A stretch of DNA of 64,000 nucleotides from NCBI GenBank assembly GCA_964019135.1, contig OZ025258.1, positions 14,911,771 through 14,975,770 of the forward strand, written 5' to 3'. Below the pieces are notes generated by a model. It had not been told where the DNA came from, did not search any database, and saw only the letters and a list, made by a program, of their open reading frames with translations. This DNA comes from Arenicola marina (Eukaryota > Annelida > Polychaeta > Arenicolidae). Position numbers and translations under genes: made by a program. Of the stretch, positions 6,126 through 56,532 are shown one piece after another (position 1 is the first letter of the stretch; each line of letters opens with the position of its first letter).

Positions 6126-6129
6126 CATC

Positions 6130-7565: not shown

Positions 7566-8079
7566 CCCCTATTCCTGTAGGGCCGATCATGTACATGTGA
7601 CACAGACAATTGCCTCCACGTGCAACGAGATATCACCATTACTTCATTGGGTTTCTACGGAAATCGGCACCGAAATGAAAAAGGTTGCTCATCCCCCGGC
7701 CCCATTGCACGATAATTGTTCATACAATAATGACCCAATGCATCATTTAAATTAAAATACTTAGTAACTTTATCATTTGAAAAATGTAGGTACGAGTAAA
7801 CAAACGTTAATCCTGCCCTGTGTTACCTTCTCTTAAAGTTGCATATCGAGCTCTTTCCCGCCAAAACTAAAGAGGTCAAATTACAAATAAGAATCAGTCC
7901 TTGAATCATTCAAGATGTCTTTTGGCTATACTCCAACTATGCCAGACGGCCAAGTAGAGTCTCTTAGCCTTGACCGTGATATCAGTTTACCACAATTTTT
8001 CATTTTAGTGGTAAACGTCATCAGTTTGTGTGCTTCGCGATGCTTGGGCATAAGTAGCAGTGCCAAGACAGAGTTCTGT
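7566..8079. other. Intergenic, no gene seen
   Basis: AT-rich sequence between the SINE and the assembly gap, with no supported feature. Confidence 0.5.
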
Positions 8080-12655: not shown

Positions 12656-12913
12656 TCCGGAGCTGGCGTACGAGCATTAACACAAGCGCCGTGGAACCAG
12701 CCTTAGCTGCGTAATGTGCTGATTAGCATGGAACCAGGCAGTTCCAGTTGGCATTTGGCTGTTACACAAGTTAAAGACATTTCAAATATAAACTTTTGCC
12801 TTTGCTTGAAGGTATTTTGCAGGCATTTTGACAGTGTTCACATACTTTGTTTTCGTTTTCAGTTTCACAGAGGCACATAGAACGACCGACACCCATTCCA
12901 TCAGCTACAGGCC

Positions 12914-35934: not shown

Positions 35935-36130
35935 TACTCAGACGCCCAGGTTAGTACTCGAATAGTGCGTCTCATCCAGTACTCGGAACGCTTGGGTTTA
36001 TACTCGGATGGTGAGTTTCATCCTGTGATCGAACGCCTGGGTCAGTGCTCGGATACCGAGTTCATCCTATAACCAAACGCTCGCGTTAGTACTCGAACGG
36101 GCTTCCCAAATACTCTTTCTACCTGTACTC
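35935..36130. repeat. Tandem repeat, about 48-bp units, at the 3' end of SLC15A4
   Basis: GTACTCGAA, CATCC and GAACGCCTGGGTT-like words recur about four times. The last unit reaches into the coding end: the codons for the C-terminal DASEYR and the stop use the repeat word GTACTCGGACGC. The SLC15A4 stop region and 3' UTR therefore appear to be part of the array. Confidence 0.75.
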
Positions 36131-39100
36131 GGACGCATCTGTATCTTGTGCATCCGTCTCCATGTCGGTGGCAGAAGTAGATCCGTACCGCTGAATATTT
36201 CTCCGGCTATTCTGATTCCGGTCTTGGCCGTTGGGAGGCGCATTCCCCCGCCTCCCCCCACCGGGGACCCCCCCTTCATCCTCGTCCTTACCCTTCCTCC
36301 GCCTGACCCTGTTCACGGACACGACCCCCATGTCCAGCCCCCAGGCGATGGCCACGAAGCAGGCGGCGCCCACCACCAGTAAGCCCGCCAGGAAGAAGAA
36401 GTAATAATCCAAGTGGCACGTGCACAGCCTGCTCGGGTCGTCGGGCGTGCCACAGGGCACGTAGCGGCAGTTGATGTCGCCGTGGTCCCAGTTGAAGAAC
36501 CAGACGCCGCGAAAGAAGAAGATGATGAGGCTACCGAGGACGGCGCCAAGGCCTTGGGTGAACCAGAACAGTCCCATGATGATACCCTGCATGGAGCGAG
36601 GGGCCTGGATGTACGCCAGCTCCAGACCTGAAACCAGATTGATTGTTTACTTGATTGATTTAATAAATAATATGATATTTTAACATGTGCCTCGATATAG
36701 GCCAACTCCAGACCTGCAACCAGATAGATTGATTAATTGTTGGATTGATTAATTTCATGCAAAGGACGTTTTAACGAGTTAAGGTACGTCATATCGAGAT
36801 AATGGGAACGTTCATCAATAGGAGAAGCCAAGCCCCCAGTGGCCCATTTCACGTACGACATAGCATAGCCGGTTACGGGGCTTAGTCGGCTAACATCGCC
36901 CATCATTTACATGGTAACTTTTATCGACTACGCCCCGTAGACAGCTAAACTACGTTCTTGAAATCCGCCACATGATTAACCATTTAGGCTTTGCTAAGAA
37001 AGACATGGATATCTTTATCTTGCACAAGCATAGATATATGGCCAGGCGCCAGTCGCTTAGGCCGGCATAGGAGTGCATATTCGACAAAAGTCCAACGCGC
37101 TACAAACTAGTCCACGGGGTGACAATACACAACGATTCGGAACCTGGATGACTGAACCAGAAACTCATAAGTTTCCAGCAGCGCTGGACTGTAAGTTACT
37201 AAAATGCCTAATTTAGCAAAGCGGCTACTTCGTGGATATAGGGCCTGACGGAAAAAATGCCTAATTCAATTCAACTAAGGTTTAAAAGATATTTCATTCA
37301 ATGTCTAAATCAAGCAATGCTTATTTCAAAAAAACAATGTTTAAGTCGGATGCAGATATGCAAAAAAAAAAAAAAAATGCTTCCAAATTCTTTGAACAAT
37401 GAACAACCTAGTGCATTGCATGAGAAATGGTAATATTATGCAACTGAAAGGACAAACTACTAGTGGCCGTTCGAATGGAACAAGTGAATAGAACAAAGCA
37501 ATGTCAACATATGGGAGCTCCGTTATATTATTTCAATGTCGCAACAGTAAACAAAGTAGACCAATCTCAGGCGCTGTTTAAATATACCTGCAACACTGGC
37601 AAATGCCTCGCTGATGCCGATTAAAGCATACTGAGGAATCTGATAGAGGATTGTCATATCTGAGGCTCGGTAGAAGGTGGTACCTGCAAGTAAAAAAACC
37701 CATAATAATCATATCTTGTAACTATGTAACTTCCATAAAAGTATGTAAATTCATTTAGATGAACATGCAATTGGTGAACAGGTTAACGTGGGCTTTTTGT
37801 ACAAACGACTATATAAATATATATAATTGAGTACATATAGGGCAAATAAAATAATATCATAAGGGTTTCCATGGTAACCATGGGGTGAGCACGCCAGCAA
37901 CTGAGGAAAGAGAGAGGGGAGGGGATGGTGGGAGGGGGGGGGGTAGCGAGGCGATCTGGATCCACTCACCGATGAGCTGCCAATGGGTGGCCTCCGTGCC
38001 GTTCGGCCAGTACCGCTCCAACCGGTAGTGCTCGACGGTTCCGGCCGCCAAGACGGCCAGGACGGCGAATACCATGCCGATGACGATCCGGGCCCGGACG
38101 GAGGGCATGATCCGGCGGGCGTCCAGGAACGGGTATACGACCAGATCCAGAAGCGGGATCAGCAGGATCAGAAACATGACGTCGAATAGGGACAGCCACG
38201 CTGCAGGAATCTGGATCAGAACAGACGATGGTTGGTTCCCTGTCTGGGACAGCTTTGTGCACACACGGGCTAAAACTGGGCCAAAATACCTCGTGGGAGA
38301 GAGGGGCCGGCGCGATAGCTCAGTGGGTTAGAGCGCTCGCATTGAGTGCTCTGGTCCCCTGAGAGCCTAATGGCACGGGAATCGGTGGTTCGCGCGCCGC
38401 TGTGGCCATCTCTGTGTGGTCGCAGGATAAAGATCCCATGTCCTTCTTCGCAAAGAGTAGGGGATTACCCCCGGGGACATGACTCCATTATCCCTTCCGC
38501 TGTGGGGGTAGTGTATTGTAGGTTACACTAAAAGCATTACATTTCTTACACGTGTTAACACCGTCACTTTCTGATCATGCGTCTAGTAAAATTTGCAAGT
38601 AATATCAGCTTTAATATTACTTACTTTAAACTGACGCGCCTCAGCGGCCGATCGGGTCCCGTTACCGCTGAAGTCTAATCTCATGTGAAGGCCTTGCACC
38701 ACGAAAGTGGTCTCCATCTGATAATAAACAATCGTTCGCTGATATATCAACAAGAAGACCTGATACGAAGGTGACATACGGTGTGCTTACTAGCAAATGC
38801 AAACGCTACTGTTACATGTTGTTCCTGCATTATTAAGGCGTAGGTCAGAAAATGCATGATTTACCACTTATACCATTACAATAACATTGTATCTAACCTT
38901 ATATGCATCATATATATATCACCAAAATAATTCATATTTCACATAGTTGTGATCACGCTGAAAAGCTGATTGTGGCAACCTTCCAAATTTGGAGTGGGCT
39001 GTCGCAGAAACCATGGAAATGCCCAAGTTACAACCAAATAAGATGCAGAATCTATCCGGATACGTTTAAAAGAACGGATGGAAACAAAGCAAAGGAAGAA

Positions 39101-41496
39101 ACGTTTCTGGCATACCTGGAAGTACACAATCCAGTATGGCGTGATCGCTATGAAGACACAGAATATCTTCCCCAGGGTCTTTATGTCTTCCACAATGTTG
39201 TCATGGTAACTACCCCCATAGCGGACTTTGGCGGTGTCCAGACAACTCGGGGAAGATTCCGCCGAGGTTTCTATGGCGCTAGAGAACCAATTACGAAAAA
39301 AATAATAGTTAGTGGAATATGCTCATATTATGAACAGTCGGTACCATTCGTTAGCTGGTCCAGAACTGCCACGGGTGAAATAGGCAACTACCTGGTATCA
39401 GTAGCATAACATTGCGATCAACCTGATATTCATTACATTACTCTAGTGTACAGTCTATCTCAGACCTATTTATTACACATCATTGGTATTAAACAGGTTG
39501 TAGCGCAATCCATCCCATATCTAAACATTCCTAGAAAAGGATTCCAAACATTATTATCGGTAATATATCCTGCATACCTGATGACCACATGTTCTTGCTC
39601 TCGACGATCTCTGTTGCAACAACCTCGCCGACAAGCTTGCGCAACAATTTTTATGATATTTGTCAAGATGCTTCCACCAGCTGGCTTCAATACGTACACA
39701 CAACCTCCTGAAATTTGTGAATAAACAGCTATAAGTATTTTACCAACATCTATATCTTATAATGACTATATCTTTCACATAATTTTCCAGCTTGTTTTCC
39801 ACTAACAGCATGAACAGACTGGTCTATCTTTGTATTTAATACAGCAATATTTATTCAAAGATATTTACCAAGTAGTTGCCTTCCATTATATTACATTGTC
39901 TTTGAAAATATATACTACAGGTAGCTAAAATGGTACAGAACATCCATCATTCCTTTTAAAATTAAACAATTACTATATTTGGCATCTGCAATATGGGTAT
40001 ATCAACCGCATTGTTCATGATTAATTTCACTGCACCATGGTTTACTTAACTACCGGTAACTATTATAACAAAAGCATTTGTGCAAGATTACTGCTGCTAC
40101 CCGGCAAAAGCAGGAGAGTATCAAAGTTAAGGTGAAGCACTTAATCTACATACCAGTAATGTCAAGTAATGCCCAAAGCAGTGGAGCAAACACTTACCAC
40201 AAATAAAGATGATGGTGGCTATCACAAGACAAATGTTTGGTGCCACATATCCCCAGAAGAAGCTTATTTCTTGTTGCACATAGGCCAGTCCCCCAAGGGA
40301 AATCAATGCACCAATATTGATACACCAATAGAACCAGTTGAAGAACATGCGTGTCGCTGCTGGACCGTCATCTTTAATCTGTAGTAAGGAAAAATACATA
40401 TCTGGAAATATTGAAATAGTAAAGTTCCAATATATAATAACATGAGATTCATAGCAGAGAATAAGAATTCTATCTGTATAGCAATGCATAGGAGAGGTTG
40501 GCAACTTCTTAACCAAAATAGAATACTACAATAAGCCTTGGCTCAAAAAAATTGGCGAAACCAGGTGAGAAGACTGTCATAGTATATTAGCTTCTTTAGC
40601 CTTTCCTTGTTACAAATATCACATCAGCAAGGGAAATGTCTAAATTACAATAAAATAACTGTACAATGAAATAAGTATTTATATTATTATAATTATGGCT
40701 AAAATCGTAAAATATAAATTTACATGATATAAAAAACTAATAGAATACTATATATTTTTAAATAAGTAACATTTATATTAAATGCTATATCTCTATTTAT
40801 ACATACCTGATCTGCTCCAAATGGGGAAATATTTGCTTTCACAGCACCATTGCCAATGCCAATAACAGCTAAAGCTAGGTATACAGCCCAAGAGCAGCTT
40901 TCAGAACTTGGTTGAATAACTGTATACCAATTGACATCCTTATCAATAGATGCTGAATTCATTGTCACATAATTTGTCCAATTTGATGACTTATTCACCG
41001 CTTTCTGAGAGCACCACTGTGGTGGGTCATCAGGATAAGTCTGTGTTACATCTGGATAAGGCGTCAGTAAGGGAAATATTATATATCCGGCAACATATAT
41101 CACAAAAAAAGCAACAATAGTCTTGAATTTTCCAAACCAGGCATCAGCGATCCAGCCTCCCAAGATTGAGGTCATGTACGACAGTCCAGTGAAGACAAAC
41201 AAGGCATTAGTCGCATTGTAAAATGTCCAGTTAAAGGGAGCCTCATTCAGAAACATCACTAAATTTCCCACAATGCCATAAAATGCGATTCTTTCAAATG
41301 TCTCAGCAAGTAACACGCATCCACAGGCAACTTTTCTCCTCCATGAAGAACCGGCAGCAGATGGGATGGGCGCCCGCAATCGTGCACGACCCCCTGTCCT
41401 CGACCCTGCCACTGAATTCGGCCTGGACGGCCCCGAATCCCTACCAGCAGGGCTGGCAGGCGCAGGCCTGAGCAAGGGTTGTCTCTCGTCATCCAT
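36119..41496 (-). CDS. SLC15A4: Proton-coupled peptide/histidine transporter, SLC15A4 (PHT1)-like
   Basis: Eight exons (41496-40807, 40378-40198, 39707-39578, 39278-39116, 38717-38625, 38210-37970, 37683-37588, 36627-36119) join in frame with GT-AG ends to give 700 residues. The POT/PTR family imports di/tripeptides (and histidine for PHT types) with protons. The N-terminal E4-RQP-L8L9 fits the acidic dileucine signal that sends SLC15A4 to endolysosomes. ExxER (ETFER, residues 65-69), GGWIADAWFGKF (signature 1) and FNWFYWCINIGALISLGG (signature 2) are intact. So are ITPYWIVYFQMETTFVVQGL and the final TM block. A long luminal loop with N-glycosylation sites after TM4 and a long Arg/Gly/Asn-rich tail make it larger than the human protein (577 aa). 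It points away from GLT1D1. Confidence 0.93.
36688..36735 (-). repeat. Duplicated start of SLC15A4 exon 8 inside intron 7
   Basis: GCCAACTCCAGACCTG and flanking bases copy 36616-36650, which hold the real acceptor and the codons GLELAYI of exon 8. The copy reads GLELAYIEA, then leaves the homology. It keeps an AG acceptor, so it could act as a decoy splice site. Confidence 0.6.
36965..37075 (-). mobile_element. Degenerate fragment of SINE family A
   Basis: GATTAACCATTTAGGCTTTG, GACATGGATATCTTTATCTT and CAAGCATAG follow the order of the family-A tail. It lies in SLC15A4 intron 7. Confidence 0.4.
38306..38510 (+). mobile_element. tRNA-derived SINE, family A (near full length)
   Basis: GGCGCGATAGCTCAGTGGGT (A box) and GGTGGTTCGCGCGCC (B-box region) are followed by CGCAGGATAAAGATCCCATG and GGGGATTACCCCCGGGGACA. 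It inserted in SLC15A4 intron 5, antisense to the gene. It is the best-preserved member of the family in this window together with 10258-10455. Confidence 0.85.
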
Positions 41497-41710
41497 ATTT
41501 CCCTTTCTTCTACGCGATCGTACCCGATTGAGAAGTTCCTTTATATCTGGGCACCTACACTACCAGAAGGTCCATCTCTTTGCCTATAAAAATTGCACAT
41601 ATAATTGCTGTTACGCTAAAAACAATGACATTAAAAGTTGTTGTCATATCTGTAACTGCCACTGCCTGGTCACATGCAATTTTGTAAACACCACTGCGTG
41701 GGCTTAAACT

Positions 41711-41752
41711 GTCACATGATCGCCTCTGTACTTGTGACGTCACTTCCGGTCC
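41711..41752. promoter_or_regulatory. Probable SLC15A4 proximal promoter: CRE and ETS/GABP motifs
   Basis: TGACGTCA (a perfect CRE) at 41735-41742 runs into CACTTCCGGT at 41741-41750, whose reverse complement ACCGGAAGTG is an ideal GABP/ETS site. GTCACATGAT lies just upstream and resembles, but does not match, the GTCACGTGAC CLEAR element of lysosomal genes. The block is about 220-255 bp upstream of the start codon. The regulatory role is inferred. Confidence 0.5.
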
Positions 41753-42438
41753 ACATGGCCTTGTTGACATAAAAAGCATAGCATCCGGTTTGACAAAGTG
41801 AAGGCTGAAGTCGAGAGGTTGGCTGCTTGATCTGTAACTTATGGGCGTCATAGTAATCTGGTAATAACTTTTCTCCATATCATAATATGAATAGGCATTG
41901 CCTATGTTGCGAGTTCACCCAAATTAAAAAATAATAAAGGCCTAGCTCTTAAAGCTGCTGTATCAACTGCAGCAGCCAGCTGTCCTAATCTTATAGCCTA
42001 GGTTTCTAGACAACTAGACCCAAAATCAACACGGGTATAGTTGGTTTGAGGTTGAGTTAGCTTGGGGTAGAGTTGGCTTGGGGTTGAGTAGGTGATGGGT
42101 CGGGCGTGTCGTGGGTCAAGTTGACTAGATGCTGTCTTATATCTGCTGTATTAGCTGAAGTAGTTTATATTCTTAAAGATGCCTGTACTGAAATATTTTA
42201 TTTAAGTTATAGAAATGATGTTTTTATCTATTTCTTTTAATTAAAAATAAGATGGATGGCTTAGTTGTTTAACGGTAATATATGCAGAGAAATACAAAAA
42301 TAAGCAGTTGCTTGAGTCTATAATTAATCATATTAGATCTATTTTATGATAATTAATATCTTATCCATTTTTAATTTTCTGACCCTTTTTTCCTTTTGCT
42401 AAAATTATATATAGGTTGATGAGACATTTTGAAACCAA
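41753..42438. other. SLC15A4 upstream flank
   Basis: It contains a short GGTTGAGT/TTGGGGT-type repeat at about 42045-42095. Nothing else is supported. Confidence 0.5.
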
Positions 42439-43011
42439 GTTTAAAGGGATTACTTCCAGTTGGACGACTTCCACTTGGACGACACCCCATTTTGGTACTT
42501 CCAGTTGGACGACTTCCAGTTAGACGACATTATATATAAATAGGTTAGGTATCGTGATATAAGGAATTCATATCGATGCATCATGGTTAGTGTGACTATT
42601 TGAGAATTTTGCAGATAAAATTAGGACAGTTTAAAGAAAGGTACAAGCATGTTTTCGGCGTGTCGTCTACGATTTAGCTTCACTGTGTTGTGGCCGACCG
42701 CCATTGCGTTGGCGTCGTGTTACATCATATATTATATATAAATGCGTTTTGGTATCACAATATACTCAATTCATATAGATGCATCATGATTAGTATGACT
42801 ATTTGAGAGGTTTGCAGATAAAATTGGGACAGTTTGAAGAATAGTAAAACCATTTTTTCGGCGTGTCGTCTAAGATTTAGCGTCACTCTGTTGTTGCCGA
42901 CCGTCATTGCATTGGCGTCGTGTTATTCTTACAAAGAGGTGTGAACGACACCTGCTCCTTTGATGTTCAAGATGGAATATTGGCGGCCTTTCCGCTTTCA
43001 CACCTCTTGAA

Positions 43012-43401
43012 TTATACACTTGGGACCTTCAGCTTGTAAGTTAATAATGTTTGATGTGGCTTGTGATTAACATACATGAGCGGTGTAACTAAATCTTCTG
43101 CTGCTAGCTGACAGAGGTCAGACTTTGCGGCTGTGGACGCCAATATTTCTTCATCTGGAATATGGCTATGATCCTTCGCGGAAAGCACATTCACACTACT
43201 GCCTTCGCCAGTAGTTAGCAGTCGACCAGGGCATCCACGAAGAACACACCGCAAATGCTGCTTGTTTCCATGAACACGATCTTTCTCGTGGCGATAATCT
43301 TTGTACAGCAAATTCACCCCGCGATGCTTCTTCACAATGGTTGCAGTTGCGTCCTCCATAGTAAACATATGGCGACAGAATGATTTCCATCTGATAAACA
43401 A
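43012..43401 (-). CDS. FLYWCH zinc-finger-type protein, transposon-borne
   Basis: 129 residues. In order: a possible start MFIRWKSF, LLYKDYRHEKDRVHGNK, LRCVLRGCPGRLLTTGEG, then DHSHIP. These supply the Cys, Cys, His, His of a FLYWCH finger, with Leu replacing the usual Trp before the first Cys. FLYWCH domains bind DNA and accompany MULE transposases. It lies between the long inverted ends of the element at 42447-45626 and overlaps the inner edge of the left arm. It is probably all that remains of the transposase gene. Host use is possible but unsupported. Confidence 0.6.
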   Translation of the reverse strand: MFIRWKSFCRHMFTMEDATATIVKKHRGVNLLYKDYRHEKDRVHGNKQHLRCVLRGCPGRLLTTGEGSSVNVLSAKDHSHIPDEEILASTAAKSDLCQLAAEDLVTPLMYVNHKPHQTLLTYKLKVPSV

Positions 43402-44148
43402 CCCCTAATATACTCTTTTAGGATGCCGATGTGCTCAAGATGCTGTGCTCAAGATTATGTATTCAGTAAGATACATCGATCCGCACAGGCATATCACAAG
43501 CCAGGTCAACTGTTGACAATTGCAATCACAGGGTTTTTTATAAAGCGATGACATGGACATACGCAAATGATGTTGACAGTTGAGTGCAATTAGGAAAATA
43601 CACTTCAAAGCTGGAGGTGTGAATTAGATAGATTTGTTTGTGCCACATACGTTTTCACAATTGAAATATATGTTTATCAATGGTCTTTGTCAAATAAAAA
43701 GTGCAATAAGAACTCAATTGTATTCCGTTATGTTAATCACAAGCCACATCAAACATTATTAACTTACAAACTGGAGGTCTCAAGTGTTTAATTCAAGAGG
43801 TGTGAAAGCGGAAAGGCCGCCAATATTCCATCTTGAACATCAAAGGAGCAGGTGTCGTTCACACCTCTTTGTAAGAATAACACGACACCAACGCAATTGC
43901 GGCCGCATCAACAGAGTGACGCTAAATCTTAGACGACACGCCGAAAAAATTGTACTATTCTTCAAACTGTCCCAATTTTATCTGCAAACTTCTCAGATAG
44001 TCATACTAATCATGTTGCATCTATATGAATTGATTAAATTGTGATACCAAAACGCATTTATATATAATATATGATGTAACACGACGCCAACGCAATGGCG
44101 GCCGCAACAACAGAGTGACGCTAAATCGTAGACGACACGCCGAAAAAT

Positions 44149-45414
44149 GGGTTGGCCCTTATAGCGAAAAGACGGCATTTTCGCGAAAAGACGGCATTTT
44201 CGCGAAAAGACAGCATTTTCGCGAAAAGACGGCATTTTCGCCAAAAGACAGGAGAATGAGAGGTTATTTCTTAGATAAATAACAAACAGCTACAAATACT
44301 TTGTGCCTTGTACCACAAGATTTTCTTTTCGTTACAAAGTGCTCAGATAAGCTAGATTTTCATAGATAGGGTGCTTGCTTGTTAGTGAGGTGTAGGTTGC
44401 ATGGTTGCACTATGATATGGTTGCACCTGAATAACTTCGTACGTTGTGCAAAGAAAAGACCTAAGATTTCATTGATTCAGCAGCATTCATTTATTGCTTA
44501 AAGAAATAAGGCCTATATACATATCCAAACATATAAAACATTGAGCAATTGAAGCTGGATGCAGCTGTGGCCTGTCCGTTGTTTTCGCGCAAACACAGCT
44601 ATCACACGACCGAAGTTGTCCTTGCAGCTCGTTTCCTTTTGCGCTGGTTTGGTTTTCTGCCTCCGTTTGGTGCAGTGACCAATAATTTGCCATCAGTGGA
44701 GCAAACGCTCTGGGAGTTTCAACGCTTTCATAAAGCGTGCCATGTGGCGGTCCCGCTGTTCCTTGGTGCGAGATGCCCACACCTCCATGGGGACAGCAAA
44801 TCGCTGAAACTGCTCACACAGGTCGAAGTCGCCAAGACCAACAAGACTCTGTTCGAGCTGTTGGTACTGTATGTCCACAACACGTTGTAGAAGGTCGATG
44901 AGCTCTAGAAGAGGTCTTGGCTCTTTTCGCGGACGACTATCTCTGTGCGAAATGACATGCTTAACCAATAAAAGGCCAGATACCAAAGTGATATCATCAA
45001 TAAAAACTGGCTTCGGTTAACATCAATTGTGAGAAGCCATGCCATGCCCAACAAGGATATACCTGGCCATTCCAAATAACAGCTTCTTTCATGCAGATTA
45101 CAGAAGCAGTGAGCCATGGGCAAGGTGTTAACCGAAGGCTGGGGATTGGTATGCTAAATTGGCTCAGTCACGGTTGCGCTATGATACACTTGTGAAAATA
45201 CGCTAACAGAAGCCGTTGGCTCATGCACACAGTTAAGTTGATATACGATTGACTAATTGGATGTTTGTTCTTCCTAATTATCATTAAGTATTATAAAGTA
45301 TAGCACAGCAAAAAATTAAGCTGAACCAGCGTCTGTGGCTTTCGCAAAAATGTCTTTTCGCGAACGACTGTCTTTTCGCGAAAAGACGTGTCTTTTCGCT
45401 ATAAGGGCCAACCG
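44149..45414. mobile_element. Nested Mutator-like element, 9-bp TSD, copy 1
   Basis: The 9-bp duplication CCGAAAAAT at 44140-44148 and 45415-45423 exactly flanks 1,266 bp. The ends are GGGTTGGCCCTTATAGCG at the left and CGCTATAAGGGCCAACCG at the right. Subterminal tandem words GCGAAAAGACGGCATTTTC follow. The middle (about 44471-44925), absent from copy 2, holds overlapping minus-strand frames (LLELIDLLQRVVDIQYQQL; NGGRKPNQRKRKRAARTT) that may be the tail of a transposase in two frames. It is inserted in the right arm of the element at 42447-45626. Confidence 0.85.
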
Positions 45415-45851
45415 CCGAAAAATTGCTTGTACTATTCTTCAAACTGTCCCAATTTTATCTGCAAACCTCTCAAATAGTCTTACTAATCATAATGCATCTA
45501 TATGAATTGCTTATTTTGCGATACCTAACGTATTTATATATATTGTCGTCTAACTGGAAGTCGTCCAACTGGAAGTACCAAAATGGGGTGTCATGCAAGT
45601 GGAAGTCGTCCAACTGAAAGCACGCCGTTTAAAGCTGGTAATAGATTTATAGCAATCTATACCTATCTATGTACCAGGGATATGTTCATAACAAAGCTAC
45701 ACCCTTTCACAGAAAGTGCCCCAATATGGCCAAAAAAAACATGTCCATAAATATTTCTATTTATATTAGAAGGACTTTAGTAGATCTATATCATTTCTAT
45801 TAAAACTATTTTCGGAGGTAACTCCTTCATGAAAAACATATTTTCATTGCC

Positions 45852-46151
45852 TGTTGTGACCTATCCATGAGAACAGATACTGAACAATTGCTAAATACAC
45901 CATGAGTAAGCTTCTTGAACACTCACACCATGTCAGAAGTATGTTTTATCCTCATCCTTCTTCTTCTACCATTCTAGCAATCTATAACATGTTTTATAGC
46001 ATGCTTTATGCGGTTGTGACCTGTCCATGAGAACATATACTGAACCGTTGCTAAATACACCACAAGTAAGTTTCTTGAACACTCACCACATGTCAGAAGT
46101 ACAATGTATGTTTTATCATCATCCGTCTTCTTCTATCATCCTAGATCTATA
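45852..46151. repeat. Two-copy tandem duplication, about 160-bp period
   Basis: GTTGTGACCTATCCATGAGA, GCTAAATACACCATGAGTAA and CTTCTTCTACCATTCTAG occur first at 45852-45984 and again with changes at about 46014-46151. Confidence 0.8.
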
Positions 46152-46168
46152 CAATTTGCTACCAATGT

Positions 46169-46449
46169 CTGGGCTCGCGCTAGGATATTTTTTTCATTAG
46201 CCAATTTGGCTAATTCCGTGGAAAAACATTAGCCAAAATTAGCCAAAATATATTAGTTATAAATTGGTTATAAATCTCATAATTGGAGATGAATGTAGTA
46301 GATCTACCATGTAATGTGAACATGAATAAAAATTTGCTTGTAGTTGAAATTTTATATTCGCCATTTTGGCGAGTGTCCAGGAAGTTCTTATCGCCAAATC
46401 CCAAATTTTCTCGCCAAATGGCTATTGGCGAATGCTAACGCGAGCCCAG
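46169..46449. mobile_element. MITE, 281 bp, 5-bp TSD
   Basis: Ends CTGGGCTCGCG and CGCGAGCCCAG are inverted repeats (extending, with one mismatch, to about 15 bp). AATGT flanks both sides (46164-46168 and 46450-46454). Internal GCCATTTTGGCGA and TCGCCAAATGGC words allow further pairing. No coding capacity. Confidence 0.75.
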
Positions 46450-46524
46450 AATGTGATACTGGTATCTCTCACAAAAAATGTTTTTAGAAAGTAAAGATAA
46501 AAAAAGATAAGTAAACTGGGCATA

Positions 46525-46625
46525 TGTTACAAAATTTCCAGTGTATAAGTCACACCCACCGATTTTGAGAAATTATTAGACTTGAGCCATAGATAAGTCG
46601 CACCAGTGTATAAGTAAAATGAAGT
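46525..46625. mobile_element. Possible MITE remnant with TATAAGTCGCACC words
   Basis: AGTGTATAAGTCACACCCACC and, inverted in spacing, GATAAGTCGCACCAGTGTAT resemble a word set common in hAT-type MITEs. Ends and duplications are not clear. Confidence 0.3.
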
Positions 46626-46811
46626 AAACTGACCATATGTTAGTTGCCTATTTACCGGTAGACACTTTTACATGCTAAAACCTGTTTATTATGTATACTT
46701 GGTATCTCTATTTGAAAGTAATACTGCTTGAGTAGGAGTAGTCCAGACAGTTTTCTGATCCTCAAAATGGTACACATTTGTGTTGCTTATCAATATGAGC
46801 TACTAAAACCG

Positions 46812-46995
46812 TTGTTTCAGTAATTGTTGCCTCTTTTATTAAACTTTTAATTCAATAATTGTTGCTTTTTTCTATTAAACTTTGAATCCAATAATTGTTG
46901 CCTTTTTTATTAAACTTTTAATTCAATAATTGTTGCCTTTTTTATTAAACTTTTTATTGAATAATTGTTGCCTTTTTGATTAATATTTTAATTAT
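46812..46995. repeat. Tandem repeat, about 36-bp unit, about 5 copies
   Basis: AATAATTGTTGCCTTTTTTA and TTAAACTTTTAATTC repeat with single changes. Confidence 0.9.
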
Positions 46996-47424
46996 TTGTC
47001 AGCAAGGGGATGTTGACAATACAAAGTACAACCATTTTTGTGTGAACATACTCAAAGCTTGACATTTTAAGAGGGGCTGTTTAGTTTCGGGAAAAGGGAT
47101 TTCATTCAGTATTTGTTAAACTGTTGATATTCTAGCTATTTTTGTCATAAAATAGCCAGTGATATGTTTAATTTTCATGCCCAAATAGACTGGATATGAA
47201 AATATTTGTATGTCCTATATTGTTTTGTGATGGTAATCTAGATCTATCTTTGTCTGGCAGGGAAACCAGTTTTTGACATTTGACATTGAAAATTATATAT
47301 AGATCTAATTAATTTAAATAAGTTATATAGATTAAAATCATTTGAAAATTAACAAAAATAGCACTGAAAAACAGCTATTTTTTCAAATCATAGATGAGTG
47401 ATATGGTTGTGAATAAATCTGAAT

Positions 47425-47945
47425 TATCCTGGGGTGTCAAAAGTAGGCAAACTGTGTCAAAAATAGAAAATAGTAAGTCATGTGAACAATATATAATAAA
47501 ATATTCTTAAAATATTTACAGTTTTGGTTTAAACTCCTGTTTAATTTTTCTCAATTAAACTCTTCAAATTATATATTTCAGGGGTGGAGGCATTTGAAAT
47601 ATAGGTTTGGAATCTAGAAACCAGAATTAAATTGTTATATTTAAAAAGGCAAAAACTACAGCTGAAATTTTGATGTCCTAGAGATATGTGTCAGAATTAG
47701 CCAAAAGGTGTCAAATGTTAGGAAATTGTATAGATCTATGAACAATATATCTACCGGTAATAAAATATTTACAGTTTTTGTTTAAAATCCTATTTAATTT
47801 GTCTCAAATAAACTCTTCAAATTAGAGCTATATATATTTCATGGGTGGAGGCATCTAAAATATAGGTTTGGAATCATAATAGAGACCAGAATTAAATTGT
47901 TATATTTAAAAAGGCAAAAACTGCAGCTGAAATTTGATGTCATAT
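47425..47945. repeat. Two-copy tandem duplication, about 265-bp period
   Basis: TTTAAACTCCTGTTTAATTT, GGGTGGAGGCATTTGAAAT and AGGCAAAAACTACAGCTGAA occur in copy 1 (about 47430-47675). They return in order in copy 2 (about 47700-47942), with small indels. Confidence 0.85.
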
Positions 47946-48214
47946 GGAAAATGTTGTGTTTGCCCTACCTACTTTTTAGTTTTACAGTGACAGACAGTGG
48001 TTTAAAGCCAAAGGCCCCAATTGGCCCAAAATAACTCTGTCTAAACATGATTCCAAATCATCAAAGTAAAACCTGCATTCCAAATAGCAATAGATCTAGG
48101 CCTACTTCTGTCAGGGTCACTGACACTGGTGTTGACCACAGCTATGCTTGTTCTTTCAACCAGTCCAGATTGATTTCATTCCTGTCTCCCTGACCATATC
48201 CATATGATATCTAT

Positions 48215-48440
48215 GGCTAGCCTGAATGTTCAGACGTTACAGTTTGACAGTCTGATGCTTACTGTTACAGTCACAAGAACAAGTGTCAAGACTACTGACT
48301 GTACCGTCTGAACCGTTTTTTGCACTGATTATTAATGTAAAAGCGTTGGTTTAAAGCCACGACCAGCTGATAGGCTTCAAGCCTGATTATACAGCTGTAT
48401 CAGATGTATGTATGTATGTATGTATGAACATTCAGGCTAG
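48215..48440. mobile_element. Possible MITE with CTAGCCTGAATGTTCA inverted ends
   Basis: CTAGCCTGAATGTTCA near 48217 and its exact reverse complement near 48424 are 16-bp inverted repeats enclosing about 190 bp. A (GTAT)n run lies beside the right end. No clear target duplication, so the call is tentative. Confidence 0.45.
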
Positions 48441-49834
48441 GCCTAATCTTAGACTTCGTCAATCTTGAATCTATGGCTAAAACAGGTAAACATGCAGACT
48501 TTATCAGTGTTTATCTGACTTGTTTTAGCTTGGACTAAAACTTTAGTTCAAGATCAAAATTAGCTAAAGCTGTCAATTAAAGATAGTTTTATATCAAAAT
48601 ACCAACCTTCAATCTCAACAAAACGTACCGACAAGTAGACGTCAACAAATCAACGACTAAGTCAGTTGTATTTGTCTAATTTGACCAGGCTGCCACCGGG
48701 GTTGACAGTTTGACAGACGCGAAGACGACACTCGACTTGGTCACTTGTCTGACTTAAAAAGTTGACAACCAGGGGCTGAAATATTCATGAAAACTGTCAT
48801 AGCAATCAGTTAAAATAAACAGATGACTTTCAAAAATAACACATACCTTGTCTAAATTTCTTATGACTTAGATCTATGCCAAACAGCAAAAAAAAAGTTG
48901 AGATTCGAACGCTTTTGCCAGATTCGCATTTTTCGGATGTTGGCATCAGACGGCGTTCCGCCAGTATAGCCGGGAGAAAGTGTGCATAAAAATGTAATCA
49001 ATGTTTTATAGTTTTCATAATCATTATTCTACCTTATTCGGGCAAATAAAGCAATAAAATAATAATTGTAGGCGTATATTCTGTTTCATATTCTGGAACT
49101 TTCTGAAATGGCTCCTATTATCGCCTTCACTCGCCGCCATGACGCGCGGTTGACGTTTTTTTTAATCGTATAGTAGATCTATGGCAATGTATGGCAAGCC
49201 AAAGGTATCATTTTTGATTTTTTTTTTTTTCTTTGTACACGTTACCATAATAGCTCGCTAGAGCTCGCTATTATGCAATCACAGATTGATGCTTGCTTCA
49301 GGTTTGGCTACCGTATGAAATGCAGATCAAGCCTGTTTAGCTATAAGTTTGACATTTGCTACCCTATCCCTGCAACATGGGCTATAGCATGGGCATGGCC
49401 CGCAGGGCGGACCGGCGGAGAGTCATGTTACACAGTTACAGGTCACAGGTCGGAGGCCATGTGCCGGGGGGCACTGATCCCCGTTCTGTGTCAGTTGAGT
49501 GACTGTGCCGGTGATCTTGGCAAACGTCATACTGTGCAGCCGCATGAATACAGTACTACTATTAGCAGATTAGTGTCATTATAGCCACGTTGCGGGGCCG
49601 TCAGGTCGGCATTTTTATGAAGCTCCAGATAATTGGGTAGGGCGTTGCTGCTTAGATCTCAACAAGCATGCCAGACTATATATAACTCTCAACTGAACCA
49701 TTAGGCAACTAAAGTGAAGCATATGTTTACCCAAAAAGTAGGTCGAGAACAGACCAATTTTTATGCTATGTTGCGGCTTTGTTATCTGCATCAGTATCAA
49801 AAGATATTTTTTTTATATATCTGACCCCGCTATT
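48441..49834. other. Intergenic, no gene seen
   Basis: A 103-codon plus frame at 49273-49584 has no recognisable motif or splice context and is left uncalled. Confidence 0.45.
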
Positions 49835-49837
49835 TAA

Positions 49838-51828
49838 ACCGGGCGACTCTCTTCTCGCGGTATTTAAGCCAGCCGACTCCTTCCCCGCGATATTTAAACT
49901 GGCCGACTCCTTCCCCGCGGTATTTAAACCGGCCAACTCCTTCACCGCGATATTTAAATCGGCCGACTCTTTCCTCGCGGTATTTAAACCCGCCGACTCC
50001 TTCCTCGCGGTATTTAAACCCGCCGACTCCATCCTCGCGGTATTTAAACCCTGTCGACTCCTTCCTTGAGGTATTTAAACCGGCCGACTCCTTCCTTGAG
50101 GTATTTAAACCGGCTGGCTCCCTTCCTCGTGGTATTTAAACCGGCTGGCTCCTTCCTCGTGGTATTTAAACCGGCTGGCTCCTTCCTCCTGGTATTTAAA
50201 CCGCCCGACTCCTTGCCCGCGGTATTTAAACCCGCCGACTCCTTCCTCGTGGTGTTTAAACCGGCCGACTCCTTCCTCGTGGTGTTTAAACCCGCCGACT
50301 CCTTCCTCGTGGTATTTAAAACGGGCCGACTCCTTCCTCACGGTACTTAAACCCGCCGACTCCTTCCTCGCGGTATTTAAACCCTGTCGACTCCTTCCTT
50401 GAGGTATTTAAACCGGCCGACTCCTTCCTGGCGGTATTTAAACCCGCCGACTCCTTCCTCGTGGTGTTTAAACCGGCCGACTCCTTCCTCACGGTATTTA
50501 AACCGGCCGACTCCTTCCTCACGGTATTTAAACCCATCGACTCCATCCTCGCGGTATTTTAACCCTGTCGACTCCTTCCTTGAGGTATTTAAACCCGCCG
50601 ACTCCTTCCTGGCGGTATTTAAACCCGCCGACTCCTTCCTCGTGGTATTTAAAACGGGCCGACTCCTTCCTCACGGTACTTAAACCCGCCGACTCCTTCC
50701 TGGCGGTATTTAAACCCGCCGACTCCTTCCTCGTGGTATTTAAACCCGCCGACTCCTTCCTGGCGGTATTTAAACCCGCCGACTCCTTCCTCGTGGTATT
50801 TAAACCCGCCGACTCCTTCCTGGCGGTATTTAAACCCGCCGACTCCTTCCTCGTGGTATTTAAAACGGGCCGACTCCTTCCTCGCGGTACTTATACCCGC
50901 CGACTCCTTCCTGGCGGTATTTAAACCCGCCGACTCCTTCCTCGTGGTATTTAAACCCGCCGACTCCTTCCTCCTGGTATTTAAACCCGCCGACTCCTTC
51001 CTCCTGGTATTTAAACCAGCCGACTCCTTCCTCCTGGTATTTAAACCCGCCGACTCCTTCCTCCTGGTATTTAAACCGGCCGACTCCTTCCTCACGGTAC
51101 TTAAACCCGCCGACTCATTTTTCGCGGTATTTAAACCCGCCGAGTCCTTCCTATCGGTATTTAAACCCGCCCACTCCTTCACTGCGATATTTAAATCGGC
51201 CGACTCCTTTCCCGTGGTATTTAAACCGGCCGCCTCTTTCCGCGCGGTATTTAAACCGGTCGACTTCTTCCTCGCGGTATTTAAACCCGTCGACTCCTTC
51301 CTTGAGGTATTTAAACCGGCTGGCTCCCTTCCTCGTGGTATTTAAACCGGCTGGCTCCTTCCTCGTGGTATTTAAACCGGCTGGCTCCTTCCTCCTGGTA
51401 TTTAAACCGCCCGACTCCTTCCTCGCGGTATTTAAACCGGCCGACTCCTTCCTCTCGGTATTTAAACCGGCCTACTCCTTACGCGCGATATTTAAACCGG
51501 CCGACTCGTTCCTCGCGGTATTTAAACCGGCCAACTCCTTCCTCGTGGTATTTAAAACGGCCGACTCCTTCCCCGTGGTATGTAAACCGACCGCTAATTC
51601 CCCGTGGTATTTATTAAACCGACCGGCTCCTTCCTCGTTGTATTTAAACCGGCCAACTCCTACTTCGCGTTATTTAAACCGGCCAACTCCTACTTCGCGT
51701 TATTTAAACTGGCCAACTCCTACCTCGCGTTATTTAAACTGGCCAACTCCTTCCTCGCGGTATTTATTTATCCGACCAGCTCCTTCCCCACGTTATTTAA
51801 ACCTGCCAACTCGATCCTGCCATGATGC
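49838..51828. repeat. 30-bp minisatellite, about 66 units, TATTTAAA core
   Basis: The unit is close to GCGGTATTTAAACCCGCCGA followed by CTCCTTCCTC. Variants at about five positions include CGGCC for CCGCC and CTGGCTCC for CCGACTCC. Dimeric and larger blocks recur: the group with three GGCTGGCTCC units at 50091-50210 returns at 51302-51420. Because 30 is divisible by 3 and the unit lacks stops in several frames, long repeat ORFs (VFKPADSFLA-type on plus) open on both strands. I read these as by-products. The array ends about 60 bp before the GLT1D1 start codon. Confidence 0.95.
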
Positions 51829-51889
51829 TTACATTCGGTACCCTTTCTGACAGGCATGATACGCCATGACCGGGTCTGCATGAGTCAGG

Positions 51890-54800
51890 ATGACGGGGTG
51901 CAGTGTGCTTTTCATGGCACGGATGGTGGCACAGAGCGGGAACGATTCAACCATAAAGCGAATCAAGTAAGGATTTTACACTTTGATTTTTATTTTCCTT
52001 GCGCATATACCATGTCAGAAAAGAACAAAGGGAGGAATTTAAGGCATCTTCTGAATACTTATTTCTTAACTGTGAATACCTAAACTATGATATGAGATAT
52101 TGTTAATATCTGATGGACAATCAGGGCTAGATTTGAACAACTTGGAAAAACAAATATGTATTTAATAAAAGGTTTATATTTGCAGGAGCCATTTTCATTC
52201 GGAGTACAAGTGTCACGCCCGCGATACCGACAGCTTCGGTGACACGCAGGAATTCCTGGATTTTTTAGAAGATGAACATATTAATGCGGTTATTGGTATC
52301 CATGCCCTACATGCCGGAAAATGGCTCAAAGGTAAAAAGGTAGCGAAAGCTTATCATTTACATTTAACAGAACCGTAGCATGTACATCAAATTTTATGAC
52401 ACATATGGTCAGAACCTGTGTTGTTGCTTGATATGTGATCGAAACTTGAAACCGGTAGAATGTGTCGCGGATATATCGCGGAAAAGCGTGTAGTCCAGGA
52501 ATAATAAGCAGACCCCAGATGGTTCTTGCACTAATCAGGCCGTAACATGTGACAAATTTAGATACGGAGTTGTGTTAATTGACAAATTAGCTTGAGTACC
52601 TTTAAAGCAGCCTACTTACATGCGCCATCTTAGATTTTTTTACATTTTAGAATCAAGACTAAACGTATCTCAAACTTATGATGCATATGATTGTTATATA
52701 TCTCGTTGAGTCTGTGAAACAACAATTTCAACATAAAACTGCGCGGTTTATTTATATCGCGCGCGGACGTCCTGGCGAGCCGCGGACGACATCACACAGA
52801 ATACCGAACAGCGAACAGGCGCAGGGATATAAAGCCGACCACCAACTTCTGCCCCGGTGAATAAATTTGCTTCTGTCCGGATAGCCCACATGCTTTCAGG
52901 ATTTAAATTCAAGACAGAACATACTTATTTGTCATGGAGAAGAGGTTGGTAATACAAAAAATTACAAAATATGTTCCTTTAAATCTTTCCAGATTCGCCC
53001 GTTCCGTTTGCCCTGATCCTGGGAGGCACCGATCTTAATGAATACAACAAAGACGCAGCTAAACTGAAGGTCATGACCTCTGCTGTGGATAAAGCCAGGT
53101 CTGTGCGCAAACATTTCATGTCGCTTTTCATAATGTTTCTGTTAAATGCATTAGCGGAGTCGCCATTTGGGTGGTTTAAGTAGAATACGTTAACCTCAGT
53201 AGCTCATATGGCGACAATGGGAAGGTTCAATGCAGAGCTGCAGAGCTATGTCTGGGGGTAACACCTGATATTCTTTGCTGGAATCACGCACCGGACTGGG
53301 CTAGTAGAGCACGCTCGACAGTAGTGGAACGCGCTACCACGCAACTAGGCCACTGGGAGACCTGAACGCAGTCATCAGCGGGTCCTTTGTAAGGGTAATA
53401 CGATCCCTAGCATGAGTCAATATATTTAATATTTCTGAAACTATATACATTTCCATTGGTTCCCGCGGACACTTGTTTTCTTAAATATTTTAATTGTCTC
53501 CTGTCGTTGCGTTGATTGGTGTGTTACAGATATATCATTACCTTCTCTGAAGCGATGAGTTTAAAGGCGAGAGATATATGGGTAAGTGGACAGTTAAGTT
53601 GTAGATATGTTAGGAGACAGCTTGCCTCTATCACTTTAGTTAATTATAGTAATTTAGTATTGTAAGAAGCTAGTATCTATGTTATTTACAGCCGTGAATA
53701 TTTATCACATGTATATATATTAATAAATATTTATATACATGTAATATAGCGTTAAGCGCGTGGATCTGACGGCGTTTTACGTTCGTGTTTGTTTTCGCTA
53801 TAGCCTTTGACGTCAGAGAGGCCACGCTTGTTCCGTGTTATCGCCCAAGGTTAGTATACCTATTCGAATCCATCATCATTGGTTTATAATACTGTTACTG
53901 GAATGATTTCATCACCCTTCGGTGTGGAAATCTACGCTACAATATCGGGTTAGGTTGTCTACCAATAGTGACAAAAATAGCACTGACGATTTTGAATTTC
54001 TTTCATGTCATATATCACTAGGCTTAACTCTCAGAAATCATGGTGCTGGGATTAATGGCCGCGTGCGGTGCCATAAACAACTGTGCTCCCTTTGGAATTT
54101 TAGCCATCAAGACTCATCCTGGTGCAGGCGCATTTAGCGAACTACGAAATCGTTTCGGTTTGGCCAGGGACAGCCAGTTTTTGTGTATGGTCGGAGGAAT
54201 AAGACCAGTGAAAGATCCGTTGTTCCTTATCCCTGCATTTTCGGGTAAGAGTTCTGTATTTCCGTGGCAATTGGGCCAATGTGGCTCAACAAATACATAC
54301 GGCTACCGAAGCGTATGAATTAAGTGAATACAACAATATTCGTGGAGACGCATGCATTCGGCAGTGCCAATCAGTGAACAATAAAGCTTCTCTGTGGAGT
54401 TGTGCTGCTATTTAATCCGATGTATCTGACTTTTGCTCGATGTACGGATCAAAACGCGAATGTTTTGCAAGTGGAATATGTCGTCTTCATTGCAGAATGG
54501 CACAGAACGAAACGAAGAGATGTCTTTATGCTGGTCATTGGGCCCGTAGTAAGTTAAAACAAGTCAACACATTTGGTAGAAATCCCTGCTTGTACGCTCC
54601 CAGGTATTTTGTATGCCAATCGAGGTTGTGTTTAATTCTAGTGATTAATTTTGGTTTAGGCCAGAGGATCGTTTGTCATGAAATGAGCTTGCCAACGTCT
54701 TAACATTATTGGATTGTACGTATACTGTGTTATCTGCACAAAAGCGATACATGCATGATTTTACCCTCGAAGTTTTCCCCAGCACTCCATTTCGAATACA

Positions 54801-56532
54801 AAAGAGAGCTTATTTTCAGTATTGTTATTAACAACGTCTGTGCATTAAAATAGCTCGACGTGACATTGATAAACAAGTATATGTAGAAACATATGTACCA
54901 CATGTAGTATATTAAATGACATATATTAGTTGTACGTTTAACAAACAACAGTTTCTGTTTTCCTGTACATGTATCAGCATCATTATCGCACCTGTTTAGC
55001 GAGAAGACGAGTACGGCGACAGAGTCTTGGAATTGGTGCAAAAGTACGAATCCGCTTTTTGGGTGTTATTTAATTTTATTGCATAAATTTATATATGTGT
55101 ATTACGAAAGAAAATTCTATAATGAAAAATGATTTGGGTCAATTTGTTGTGGAATTTTATTAGATTAAAGAGAGCTTCTCAATATCTTCCTATCTTAGTT
55201 GGTTATAGCTGCATATCACGTTCGTGCTCTAGCACTTGCATCTGGCGTATGGGGTATGTGCATAAATGTGGCCTAAATTTAAATTTTGATACCGTGGTCG
55301 TCTTTTTGTAATATGTTTCTATCGGCGTAGTTTGACTGCCTTAGGTGACATATTTCGAGGAGACCAACCTACGTCATCTTCCCCTCGCAGATTTATATAT
55401 ATAAGATTGATCCATTGCGTGAATGTTTCACATTCTGTGGACAGGTTATTTGTTGCCAATCTAGGTCGGAAGGGGTTATTTTCCTTGGAGGTCGGGACAT
55501 GGAGGAGACTCATGCCATCATTAAAGACAGCCTAGCCCTGGTGAATTCCTCCACAAGCGAGGGCATGGCCACTGCCATATTGGAGGTAGTGTATGGATTA
55601 AAAGCCTACATGCAACATGCAATGACACGTAACGGTAACTAAAAGCTGGGGTTTGAGCCAAGTAGCTGGCCTAAGTTAATAGACCGGTATTCAAAACACT
55701 GACGTAAGTTACGCACGAAAAAGTGACCGTCCGGCGTATGCCCTTATAGTTGTGGGGTTCAAAATCCAGAAATAATATTTAATATAATTTAGGCACTCTA
55801 AATCATAAAATGCATAATTTTTTATTCTGAACCACAAAAACGATCGACAAATGTTCTGCTTAGCGTTACGTACGTAGATTTGTTTAGCCTAAGAGTCTGA
55901 TTCACTAATGATGACAAAGAGAAAAATGCGAAAAATAATGTTTATAGCATCGAAAACCCGAGTTGGAGAATGGGCTAATATCAGGCTGCTTCTGGACTGT
56001 CATACGCAGCGTTGCCCAGTTGTCAAAGATCGATCTACTAGAAACATTTTGGAAGATTTTTTATCCAATGTAAATCTTGCATTCGAGTATATAGGCATAT
56101 AAAATAGGTATATATGCTAGATATCTTTGGGTGGTGTTATTTCACAGGCTATGGAACTTGAAACCCCAGTGATTGCCCGCGATATTCCCGGCAATAGAGC
56201 ACTGGTATGCCACGAGAAGACCGGACTACTCTACTCGACCCCTCAGGTATTTTATTATTAATATAATACATGGAGTTAATTAAACACAAGTGCATTTACT
56301 AAGCAACTTAGCATGAATGTATATGAATGCAGAATATGTAACGGAAATGTGACATTCTACATACACGTCTGATTCACAGGAATTCTTGGGGCATCTTGAC
56401 CGTTTGCTTCTGGACCAAAACCTTGCCGCCACAATCGTCAGACATGCAAAGGAGCAAGTTAAACATTGCCACGGATGTGAAGAGGAGCAGAAAGCTTACG
56501 CTACTATTATCCGAGATTTATGTACTGTTTGA
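51890..56532 (+). CDS. GLT1D1: Glycosyltransferase 1 domain-containing protein 1 (GLT1D1)-like
   Basis: Eleven exons: 51890-51966, 52186-52331, 52993-53098, 53530-53581, 53804-53849, 54104-54244, 54496-54548, 55000-55064 (3' end uncertain), 55465-55585 (5' end uncertain), 56148-56246 and 56380-56532. They join in phase to 352 residues; human is about 346. The N-terminal SGNDSTIKRIKSH matches the GTGNATTAARLRDH region of the human protein. Then come PFALILGGTDLNEYN, GGIRPVKDPLFLIPAFS, FMLVIGP and, at residues 261-269, EGMATAILE, the E-x7-E element of retaining GT-B (GT4) enzymes. ETPVIARDIPGN and HEKTGLLYSTPQE complete the Rossmann half. The acceptor and sugar are unknown for the family. An in-frame stop (TGA) 9 bases before the ATG supports the start. 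Confidence 0.93.
52601..52978 (+). repeat. Dispersed repeat of about 370 bp, copy 2 (partner at 26990)
   Basis: Same order and orientation as 26990-27357, from TTTAAAGCAGCCTACTTACA to ATTACAAAATATGTTCC. It lies in GLT1D1 intron 2 and stops about 14 bases before the exon 3 acceptor AG. Confidence 0.85.
53210..53370 (-). mobile_element. Degenerate fragment of SINE family A
   Basis: AGAGCTATGTCTGGGGGTAA and ATATTCTTTGCTGG echo the family tail. It lies in GLT1D1 intron 3. Confidence 0.35.

What the first reader, a model, noticed from the sequence alone, without database searches (positions are those of the whole stretch)
36119..56532. Head-to-head SLC15A4-GLT1D1 pair matches the human arrangement
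Here SLC15A4 is on the minus strand and GLT1D1 on the plus strand, adjacent and divergent. From memory, human 12q24.32 has the same neighbours in the same orientation. A retained pair across such distance suggests shared regulation or ancestral bilaterian linkage. SBDS, next to it here, is elsewhere (chr 7) in human. The local 10.4-kb gap has been inflated by transposons and satellites without breaking the pair.
Basis: partly seen in the sequence, partly recalled or inferred. Interest (0 to 1): 0.75.

Follow-up and report, generated by a model that had tools for sequence, protein, structure and literature searches.

The report
Ancient SLC15A4–GLT1D1 gene neighbours in annelid
Two unrelated genes that sit side by side and back to back in humans are also side by side and back to back in this annelid worm, with a third human neighbour on the same chromosome; this is most likely a scrap of gene order inherited from an early bilaterian, which is a known kind of thing.

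Summary
The window lies on a 43-Mb chromosome (C11) of an 867-Mb genome whose mitochondrial gene order fits annelids. SLC15A4 is an open 8-exon, 700-aa gene on the minus strand (41496–36119); GLT1D1 is an open 11-exon, 358-aa gene on the plus strand (51890–56532). Each is the only copy found. The transporter is SLC15A4-type: 448 bits to SLC15A4, 358 to SLC15A3, 125 to SLC15A2.

Both families are human 12q24.3 neighbours. Two other tested families are not on C11.

The 10,393-bp gap is 68% interspersed repeat, nested three deep, and 19% minisatellite.

Inheritance from the annelid–vertebrate ancestor is the best reading. Shared regulation is not shown; a shared promoter is unlikely today; linked long-range regulation or passive survival remain open. 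It is a new example of conserved microsynteny. No other invertebrate genome could be checked.

The parts
36119..41496 (-). SLC15A4 (PHT-type member of the POT family), 8 exons: 41496-40807, 40378-40198, 39707-39578, 39278-39116, 38717-38625, 38210-37970, 37683-37588, 36627-36119; 700 aa
   Evidence: Open spliced frame; PDB search 448 bits to SLC15A4; Pfam PTR2 3.5e-82; all 8 genome hits of its protein fall in this gene
41497..51889 (.). Intergenic gap between the two start codons, 10,393 bp: 7,025 bp matched by interspersed repeats, 1,982 bp minisatellite, 1,386 bp other (994 bp if unmatched pieces inside the repeat span are left out)
   Evidence: computed from the matches that one search listed (its list was cut)
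41876..49292 (.). Element X, split by the insertions; pieces 41876-42446, 45627-46168, 46450-48313, 48425-49292; other genomic copies at about 84-98% identity
   Evidence: window = query position + 41499
42447..45626 (.). Element Y inserted in X, flanked by a perfect 8-bp target-site duplication GTTTAAAG; itself split by Z
   Evidence: other copies 97-99% identical over its long left piece
44149..45414 (.). Element Z inserted in Y; terminal inverted repeats GGTTGGCCCTTATAGCG / CGCTATAAGGGCCAACC
   Evidence: other copies 96-98% identical
49831..51812 (.). 30-bp minisatellite, about 66 copies, ending 77 bp before the GLT1D1 start codon
   Evidence: spacing
51890..56532 (+). GLT1D1 (GT4-type glycosyltransferase), 11 exons: 51890-51966, 52186-52331, 52993-53098, 53530-53581, 53804-53849, 54104-54244, 54496-54548, 55000-55062, 55445-55585, 56148-56246, 56380-56532; 358 aa
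   Evidence: Open spliced frame; Pfam Glycos_transf_1 3.8e-23; all 6 genome hits of its draft protein fall in this gene
61499..64000 (+). SBDS (runs off the window), next gene recognised after GLT1D1 on the same strand
   Evidence: SBDS_domain_II 3.2e-28 and SBDS_N 1.8e-18 on exons picked by eye

Best explanation
The divergent SLC15A4–GLT1D1 pair is a stretch of ancestral bilaterian gene order, inherited separately by annelids and vertebrates. It is part of a looser ancestral neighbourhood that also held TMEM132 and, at chromosome scale, Piwi. Each gene does its ordinary job, recalled as an endolysosomal proton-coupled histidine/peptide transporter and a GT4-type glycosyltransferase; no joint function is needed. 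The mechanism I think most likely for retention (about 0.4, inferred) is intermingled long-range cis-regulation, with control elements of one gene, or of the neural gene TMEM132, lying in or beyond its neighbour. A single shared promoter is less likely, because about 9 kb of repeat now separates the two start codons. Shown: identities, strands, single copies found, linkage to TMEM132 and Piwi genes, repeat content. Inferred: common descent and the regulatory reason. The confidence given is for descent.
For: Open genes, each found once, in the divergent arrangement. The human interval holds TMEM132C, SLC15A4, GLT1D1 and TMEM132D as its known genes (PMC3364975). A comparison of seven vertebrates reports TMEM132B, TMEM132C, SLC15A4 and GLT1D1 (printed GLTD1) among the common genes around AACS (PMC5981300), and Piwil1 is generally flanked by Fzd10, Tmem132d and Glt1d1 in bony and jawed vertebrates (PMC8574217). 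In this genome the only TMEM132 found (fourth, fifth, sixth and C-terminal domains) lies 362 kb from SLC15A4; one random placement would land that close with probability 8.4e-4. Of four Piwi-domain loci two are on C11 and both match Piwi-like protein 1 best; C11 is 5% of the assembly. Of two DRY_EERY (SFSWAP/CLASRP family) loci one is on C11. Human eQTL: a proxy SNP of a GLT1D1 variant is associated with SLC15A4 expression (PMC6028392).
Against: Only one invertebrate genome could be examined, so two lineages are compared, and the human strands are recalled. POLE is on C3 and none of 3 ACAS_N loci (a family that includes AACS, recalled) is on C11. A third Piwi locus, on C4, also scores higher with Piwi-like 1 (87.5 bits) than with Piwi-like 2 (73.4), so which locus corresponds to PIWIL1 is unsettled; only one short exon of each was compared. 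TMEM132 is not adjacent: 362 kb away, with gene-like exons in between, and its strand relative to SLC15A4 differs from human TMEM132C as I recall it. Opposite brain expression of the two human genes (PMC12385676) argues against simple co-expression. A published count finds that vertebrates lost 84% of blocks new in the bilaterian ancestor (PMC8851819), so survival on the human side is unusual.
Confidence: 0.8

Rival explanations
1. Passive survival: the pair is ancestral, but nothing holds it together; it is simply one of the adjacencies that random rearrangement has not yet broken. (This shares common descent with the best explanation and differs only in the reason for retention.)
For: Non-clitellate annelids keep ancestral linkage groups with few splits (PMC11371463, section 6), so some neighbours should survive unaided; whether this animal is non-clitellate is not settled. 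The gap took in three nested repeats and a 2-kb minisatellite with both frames open, so spacing is not constrained.
Against: The neighbourhood is reported among seven vertebrates (PMC5981300) as well as here, and vertebrates lost most old blocks (PMC8851819).
Confidence: 0.4
2. A shared bidirectional promoter held the two genes together, at least until the recent insertions.
For: Without the interspersed repeats and minisatellite only about 1.0-1.4 kb of the gap remains, and Y and Z copies are 96-99% identical to copies elsewhere, so the start codons may recently have been near bidirectional-promoter distance.
Against: Start codons are now 10.4 kb apart with both genes open; the human distance is about 30 kb as I recall; the CpG ratio in the non-repeat pieces and around the starts is not raised (0.65-0.77 against 0.92 for the window); human expression in brain is opposite (PMC12385676).
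Confidence: 0.15
3. Coincidence: the two genes became neighbours independently in the two lineages.
For: Only two lineages compared; POLE and ACAS_N genes are not on this chromosome.
Against: Adjacency in the same orientation has a probability of about 2e-5 under a random order of an assumed 25,000 genes; TMEM132 within 362 kb has 8.4e-4; two Piwi genes are on the same chromosome.
Confidence: 0.02

Closest known systems
Conserved bilaterian microsynteny blocks (Robert et al. 2022, PMC8851819)
   Same: Orthologous genes kept as neighbours across phyla; 256 blocks new in the bilaterian ancestor are reported
   Different: Their blocks need at least three orthologues with at most five genes between; here the pair is clear and the third member, TMEM132, is 362 kb away with an uncounted number of genes between
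Genomic regulatory blocks with bystander genes
   Same: A neural gene family with large introns (TMEM132, recalled) flanks the pair in human and is linked here
   Different: No conserved noncoding elements or chromatin domain could be tested
Bidirectional-promoter gene pairs
   Same: Head-to-head orientation; non-repeat gap about 1.0-1.4 kb
   Different: Present start codons are 10.4 kb apart
Vertebrate 12q24.32 neighbourhood (TMEM132C–SLC15A4–GLT1D1–TMEM132D; PMC3364975, PMC5981300)
   Same: Same adjacent pair; TMEM132 linked
   Different: One TMEM132 found here instead of copies on both sides; SBDS is the next recognised gene on the GLT1D1 side

Membership tests
SLC15A4 (PHT1) | POT/PTR2 domain | tested here: met
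   Pfam PTR2 3.5e-82 over residues 124-568 of the query
SLC15A4 (PHT1) | Closer to SLC15A4 than to other SLC15 members | tested here: met
   448 bits SLC15A4, 358 SLC15A3, 125 SLC15A2, 108 SLC15A1 (SLC15A5 was not among the matches). No tree was built, so co-orthology to SLC15A3 and SLC15A4 together is not excluded
GLT1D1 | GT4-type glycosyltransferase domain, complete frame | tested here: met
   Glycos_transf_1 3.8e-23; 358 aa open
GLT1D1 | Closest relative is animal GLT1D1 rather than another GT4 enzyme | tested here: inconclusive
   No GLT1D1 among the 11 PDB matches; best NCBIfam matches are prokaryotic GT4 families below their cut-offs; match to human GLT1D1 is recalled; no other genome locus matched
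Conserved bilaterian microsynteny block (PMC8851819 definition) | Three or more orthologues with at most five genes between neighbours, in more than one clade | tested here: inconclusive
Bidirectional promoter pair | Divergent transcript starts within about 1 kb (threshold recalled) | tested here: inconclusive
   Start codons 10,393 bp apart, which argues against it; transcript starts themselves are not known
Genomic regulatory block | Conserved noncoding elements spanning target and bystanders | not testable with these tools
   No second annelid or other invertebrate genome held

The most novel reading that the evidence does not exclude
TMEM132, SLC15A4, GLT1D1 and Piwi formed one regulatory neighbourhood in the bilaterian ancestor, in which long-range neural enhancers of TMEM132 have kept the unrelated transporter and glycosyltransferase genes as passengers since then (over 500 million years, recalled), tolerating nested transposon insertions between the passengers but not their separation.
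Probability: 0.2. Interest if true: 0.6.

Novelty: new member of a known kind. Interest (0 to 1): 0.35.

Why it matters
If the block holds across phyla, it gives a small, single-copy test case for why some gene neighbours outlast half a billion years of rearrangement, at a locus with human medical interest (SLC15A4 in lupus, PMC6028392). Here the gap was filled by repeats, so promoter sharing and long-range regulation can be told apart by experiment. As it stands it adds one example to a known class.

Tried and rejected
Shared promoter as the present cause: set aside because of the 10.4-kb repeat-filled gap. Wrong SLC15 paralogue: rejected by bit scores and by the protein search, whose 8 hits all fall in this gene, although the PTR2 family has arrays on C18 and C8, a locus on C20 and one hit on C5. 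GLT1D1 lacking a first exon: a strict motif search missed it, a looser one found it. TMEM132 reaching up to SLC15A4: N-terminal and third-domain models found nothing (the tool warns that this does not show absence), so its 5' end is unplaced and 362 kb is an upper estimate of the distance. Wider 12q24 linkage: of five families of human neighbours searched, three had a hit on C11 (TMEM132; Piwi, 2 of 4 loci; DRY_EERY, 1 of 2 loci) and two did not (POLE, 0 of 1; ACAS_N, 0 of 3). The DRY_EERY locus was not resolved between SFSWAP and CLASRP, so I give it little weight. Two minus-strand exon-like frames at 24.5 and 26.7 kb gave no Pfam match. Of six flank frames scanned beside them, PAN-like (below cut-off) and 60S acidic ribosomal protein matches came up and four gave nothing. 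A paper on ancient microsynteny looked up by DOI is not held.
Full report
Where the window lies. The window is C11:14911771-14975770 of an 867-Mb genome in 762 contigs. C11 is 43.1 Mb. The mitochondrial contig, 15.9 kb, reads cox1-N-cox2-D-atp8-Y-G-cox3-Q-nad6-cob-W-atp6-R-gap-H-nad5-F-E-P-T-nad4L-nad4-C-M-rrnS-V-rrnL-L-A-S-L-nad1-I-K-nad3-S-nad2, all on one strand. Protein genes were named by eye, tRNAs by ARAGORN; atp8 and the rRNAs are inferred from position; 3 of 25 ARAGORN calls that I judged spurious, two of them on the other strand, were left out. One strand for all genes is reported for the annelids studied up to then (PMC4505326, passages), and a noncoding gap between trnR and trnH is that of Clitellata (PMC4866719, passages). 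Siboglinidae share the Clitellata order, and many other annelid families share its protein-gene order. The passages do not spell the order out; its identity with that of Lumbricus is recalled. The animal is therefore most likely an annelid; the order does not tell earthworm from polychaete.

The two genes. SLC15A4 runs on the minus strand in eight exons from ATG 41496 to the stop at 36119, 700 aa with all junctions in phase. Its best solved-structure match is SLC15A4 (448 bits), then SLC15A3 (358), SLC15A2 (125) and SLC15A1 (108). Its protein finds only itself in the genome, 8 of 8 hits. The wider PTR2 family has 42 exon hits, with arrays on C18 and C8, a locus on C20 and one hit on C5. GLT1D1 runs on the plus strand in eleven exons from ATG 51890 to the stop at 56532, 358 aa, with a GT4 domain at 3.8e-23. 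Its protein, searched as a draft, finds only itself, 6 of 6 hits. No GLT1D1 was among its 11 PDB matches, so the name rests on the GT4 domain plus resemblance to the human protein that I recall. SBDS follows on the same strand.

The human comparison. A linkage study lists TMEM132C, SLC15A4, GLT1D1 and TMEM132D as the four known genes of its 1.3-Mb interval at 12q24.32, beside four hypothetical genes and a microRNA (PMC3364975, passages). A duplication in one patient carries TMEM132C, SLC15A4 and GLT1D1 together (PMC12385676, passages). A comparison of seven vertebrates from human to coelacanth reports TMEM132B, TMEM132C, SLC15A4 and GLT1D1 (printed GLTD1) among the common genes around AACS (PMC5981300, passages), and Piwil1 is generally flanked by Fzd10, Tmem132d and Glt1d1 in bony and jawed vertebrates (PMC8574217, passage). 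The human strands, and the human places of SFSWAP and POLE, are recalled.

Wider linkage in the annelid. I searched the genome with five families of human 12q24 neighbours. TMEM132: two exon hits, both on C11 at 14.57-14.59 Mb, minus strand. Scanning two of the three 10-kb stretches fetched there, minus strand only, found the fourth, fifth, sixth and C-terminal TMEM132 domains. The nearest exon is 362 kb from SLC15A4; a random single gene lies that near with probability 8.4e-4. Because the gene is on the minus strand its 5' end points towards SLC15A4, and its N-terminal and third-domain models found nothing, so the true distance may be smaller. Piwi: four loci, two of them on C11 at 24.90 and 24.96 Mb. 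One exon of each locus was compared with solved structures: both C11 loci match Piwi-like protein 1 best (85 and 93 bits, against 54 and 61 for Piwi-like 2); the C4 locus matches chains labelled Piwi best (95), with Piwi-like 1 at 88 and Piwi-like 2 at 73; the C9 locus is an Argonaute. So two of three Piwi genes are on C11, but which one corresponds to PIWIL1 is not settled. DRY_EERY (SFSWAP or CLASRP, not resolved): one locus on C11, one on C5. POLE: C3. ACAS_N (includes AACS, recalled): C2, C14 and contig C591, none on C11. C11 is 5% of the assembly. Linkage is therefore retained in part.

The gap. The 10,393 bp between start codons, with 301 bp more on the GLT1D1 side and 3 bp less on the other, were compared with the whole genome (a lower-bound search that scored 28 of 3,286 candidates and listed part of 166 matches). 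The listed matches cover 7,025 bp. They resolve into element X, interrupted by element Y with a perfect 8-bp target-site duplication GTTTAAAG, itself interrupted by element Z with terminal inverted repeats. Copies elsewhere are mostly 84-98% (X), 97-99% (long left piece of Y) and 96-98% (Z) identical. A 30-bp minisatellite fills 1,982 bp and ends 77 bp before the GLT1D1 start. What remains is 1,386 bp, or 994 bp outside the repeat span. It implies that the start codons may once have been about 1.0-1.4 kb apart.

Interpretation. Common descent is the only good explanation of the shared arrangement. Why it persisted is open. A single shared promoter is unlikely to be required today. Linked long-range regulation has one supporting human observation, an eQTL for SLC15A4 that is a proxy of a variant in GLT1D1 (PMC6028392, passages), and one against simple co-expression, opposite brain expression (PMC12385676). 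Passive survival is about as likely: non-clitellate annelids keep their ancestral linkage groups largely unsplit (PMC11371463, section 6), though whether this animal is one is not settled. Against that, vertebrates lost 84% of blocks that arose in the bilaterian ancestor (PMC8851819, section 5 part 1 of 2).

What is in print. Searches of the open library for SLC15A4 with GLT1D1 (5 papers, all human genetics by title and abstract opening), for three or more of SLC15A4, GLT1D1, TMEM132C, TMEM132D and synteny (6 papers), for GLT1D1 with microsynteny (0) and for GLT1D1 with invertebrate (0) showed no report of the pair outside vertebrates. Two broader searches were seen only in their first rows: 10 of 101 papers, none holding TMEM132, and 6 of 4,910, none holding GLT1D1. 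Supplementary tables of synteny papers could not be read, so the pair may be listed there.

Verdict. Observation confirmed, interpretation partly supported, and the kind of feature known. The linked TMEM132 and Piwi genes are the new element.

Noticed in passing
36685-36714, minus strand: A short duplicate of the start of SLC15A4 exon 8, with its own AG acceptor, lies 86 bp upstream of the real exon start; possibly a spurious or alternative acceptor.
   Followed up: no
12881-14083, plus strand: Single-exon rhodopsin-type GPCR, 401-aa frame, Pfam 7tm_1 7.8e-23.
   Followed up: partly
42447-45626: Nested transposon insertions (three elements deep with X) with target-site duplication and terminal inverted repeats.
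   Followed up: partly
49831-51812: 30-bp minisatellite of about 66 units ends 77 bp before the GLT1D1 start codon, where its promoter would be expected.
   Followed up: no
C11:14980594-14980846 (L035), minus strand: 60S acidic ribosomal protein exon (Pfam Ribosomal_60s 1e-6), the next recognised gene beyond SBDS.
   Followed up: no
C18:3.38-3.94 Mb and C8:25.71-25.95 Mb: Arrays of SLC15/PTR2-family exons, suggesting local expansion of peptide transporters.
   Followed up: no
C11:24.90 and 24.96 Mb: Two Piwi genes closest to Piwi-like 1, about 50 kb apart and divergent on opposite strands.
   Followed up: partly
6156-7191: 26-bp tandem array, about 40 copies, in a stretch with strong GC skew (-0.44 over 6001-8000).
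   Followed up: no
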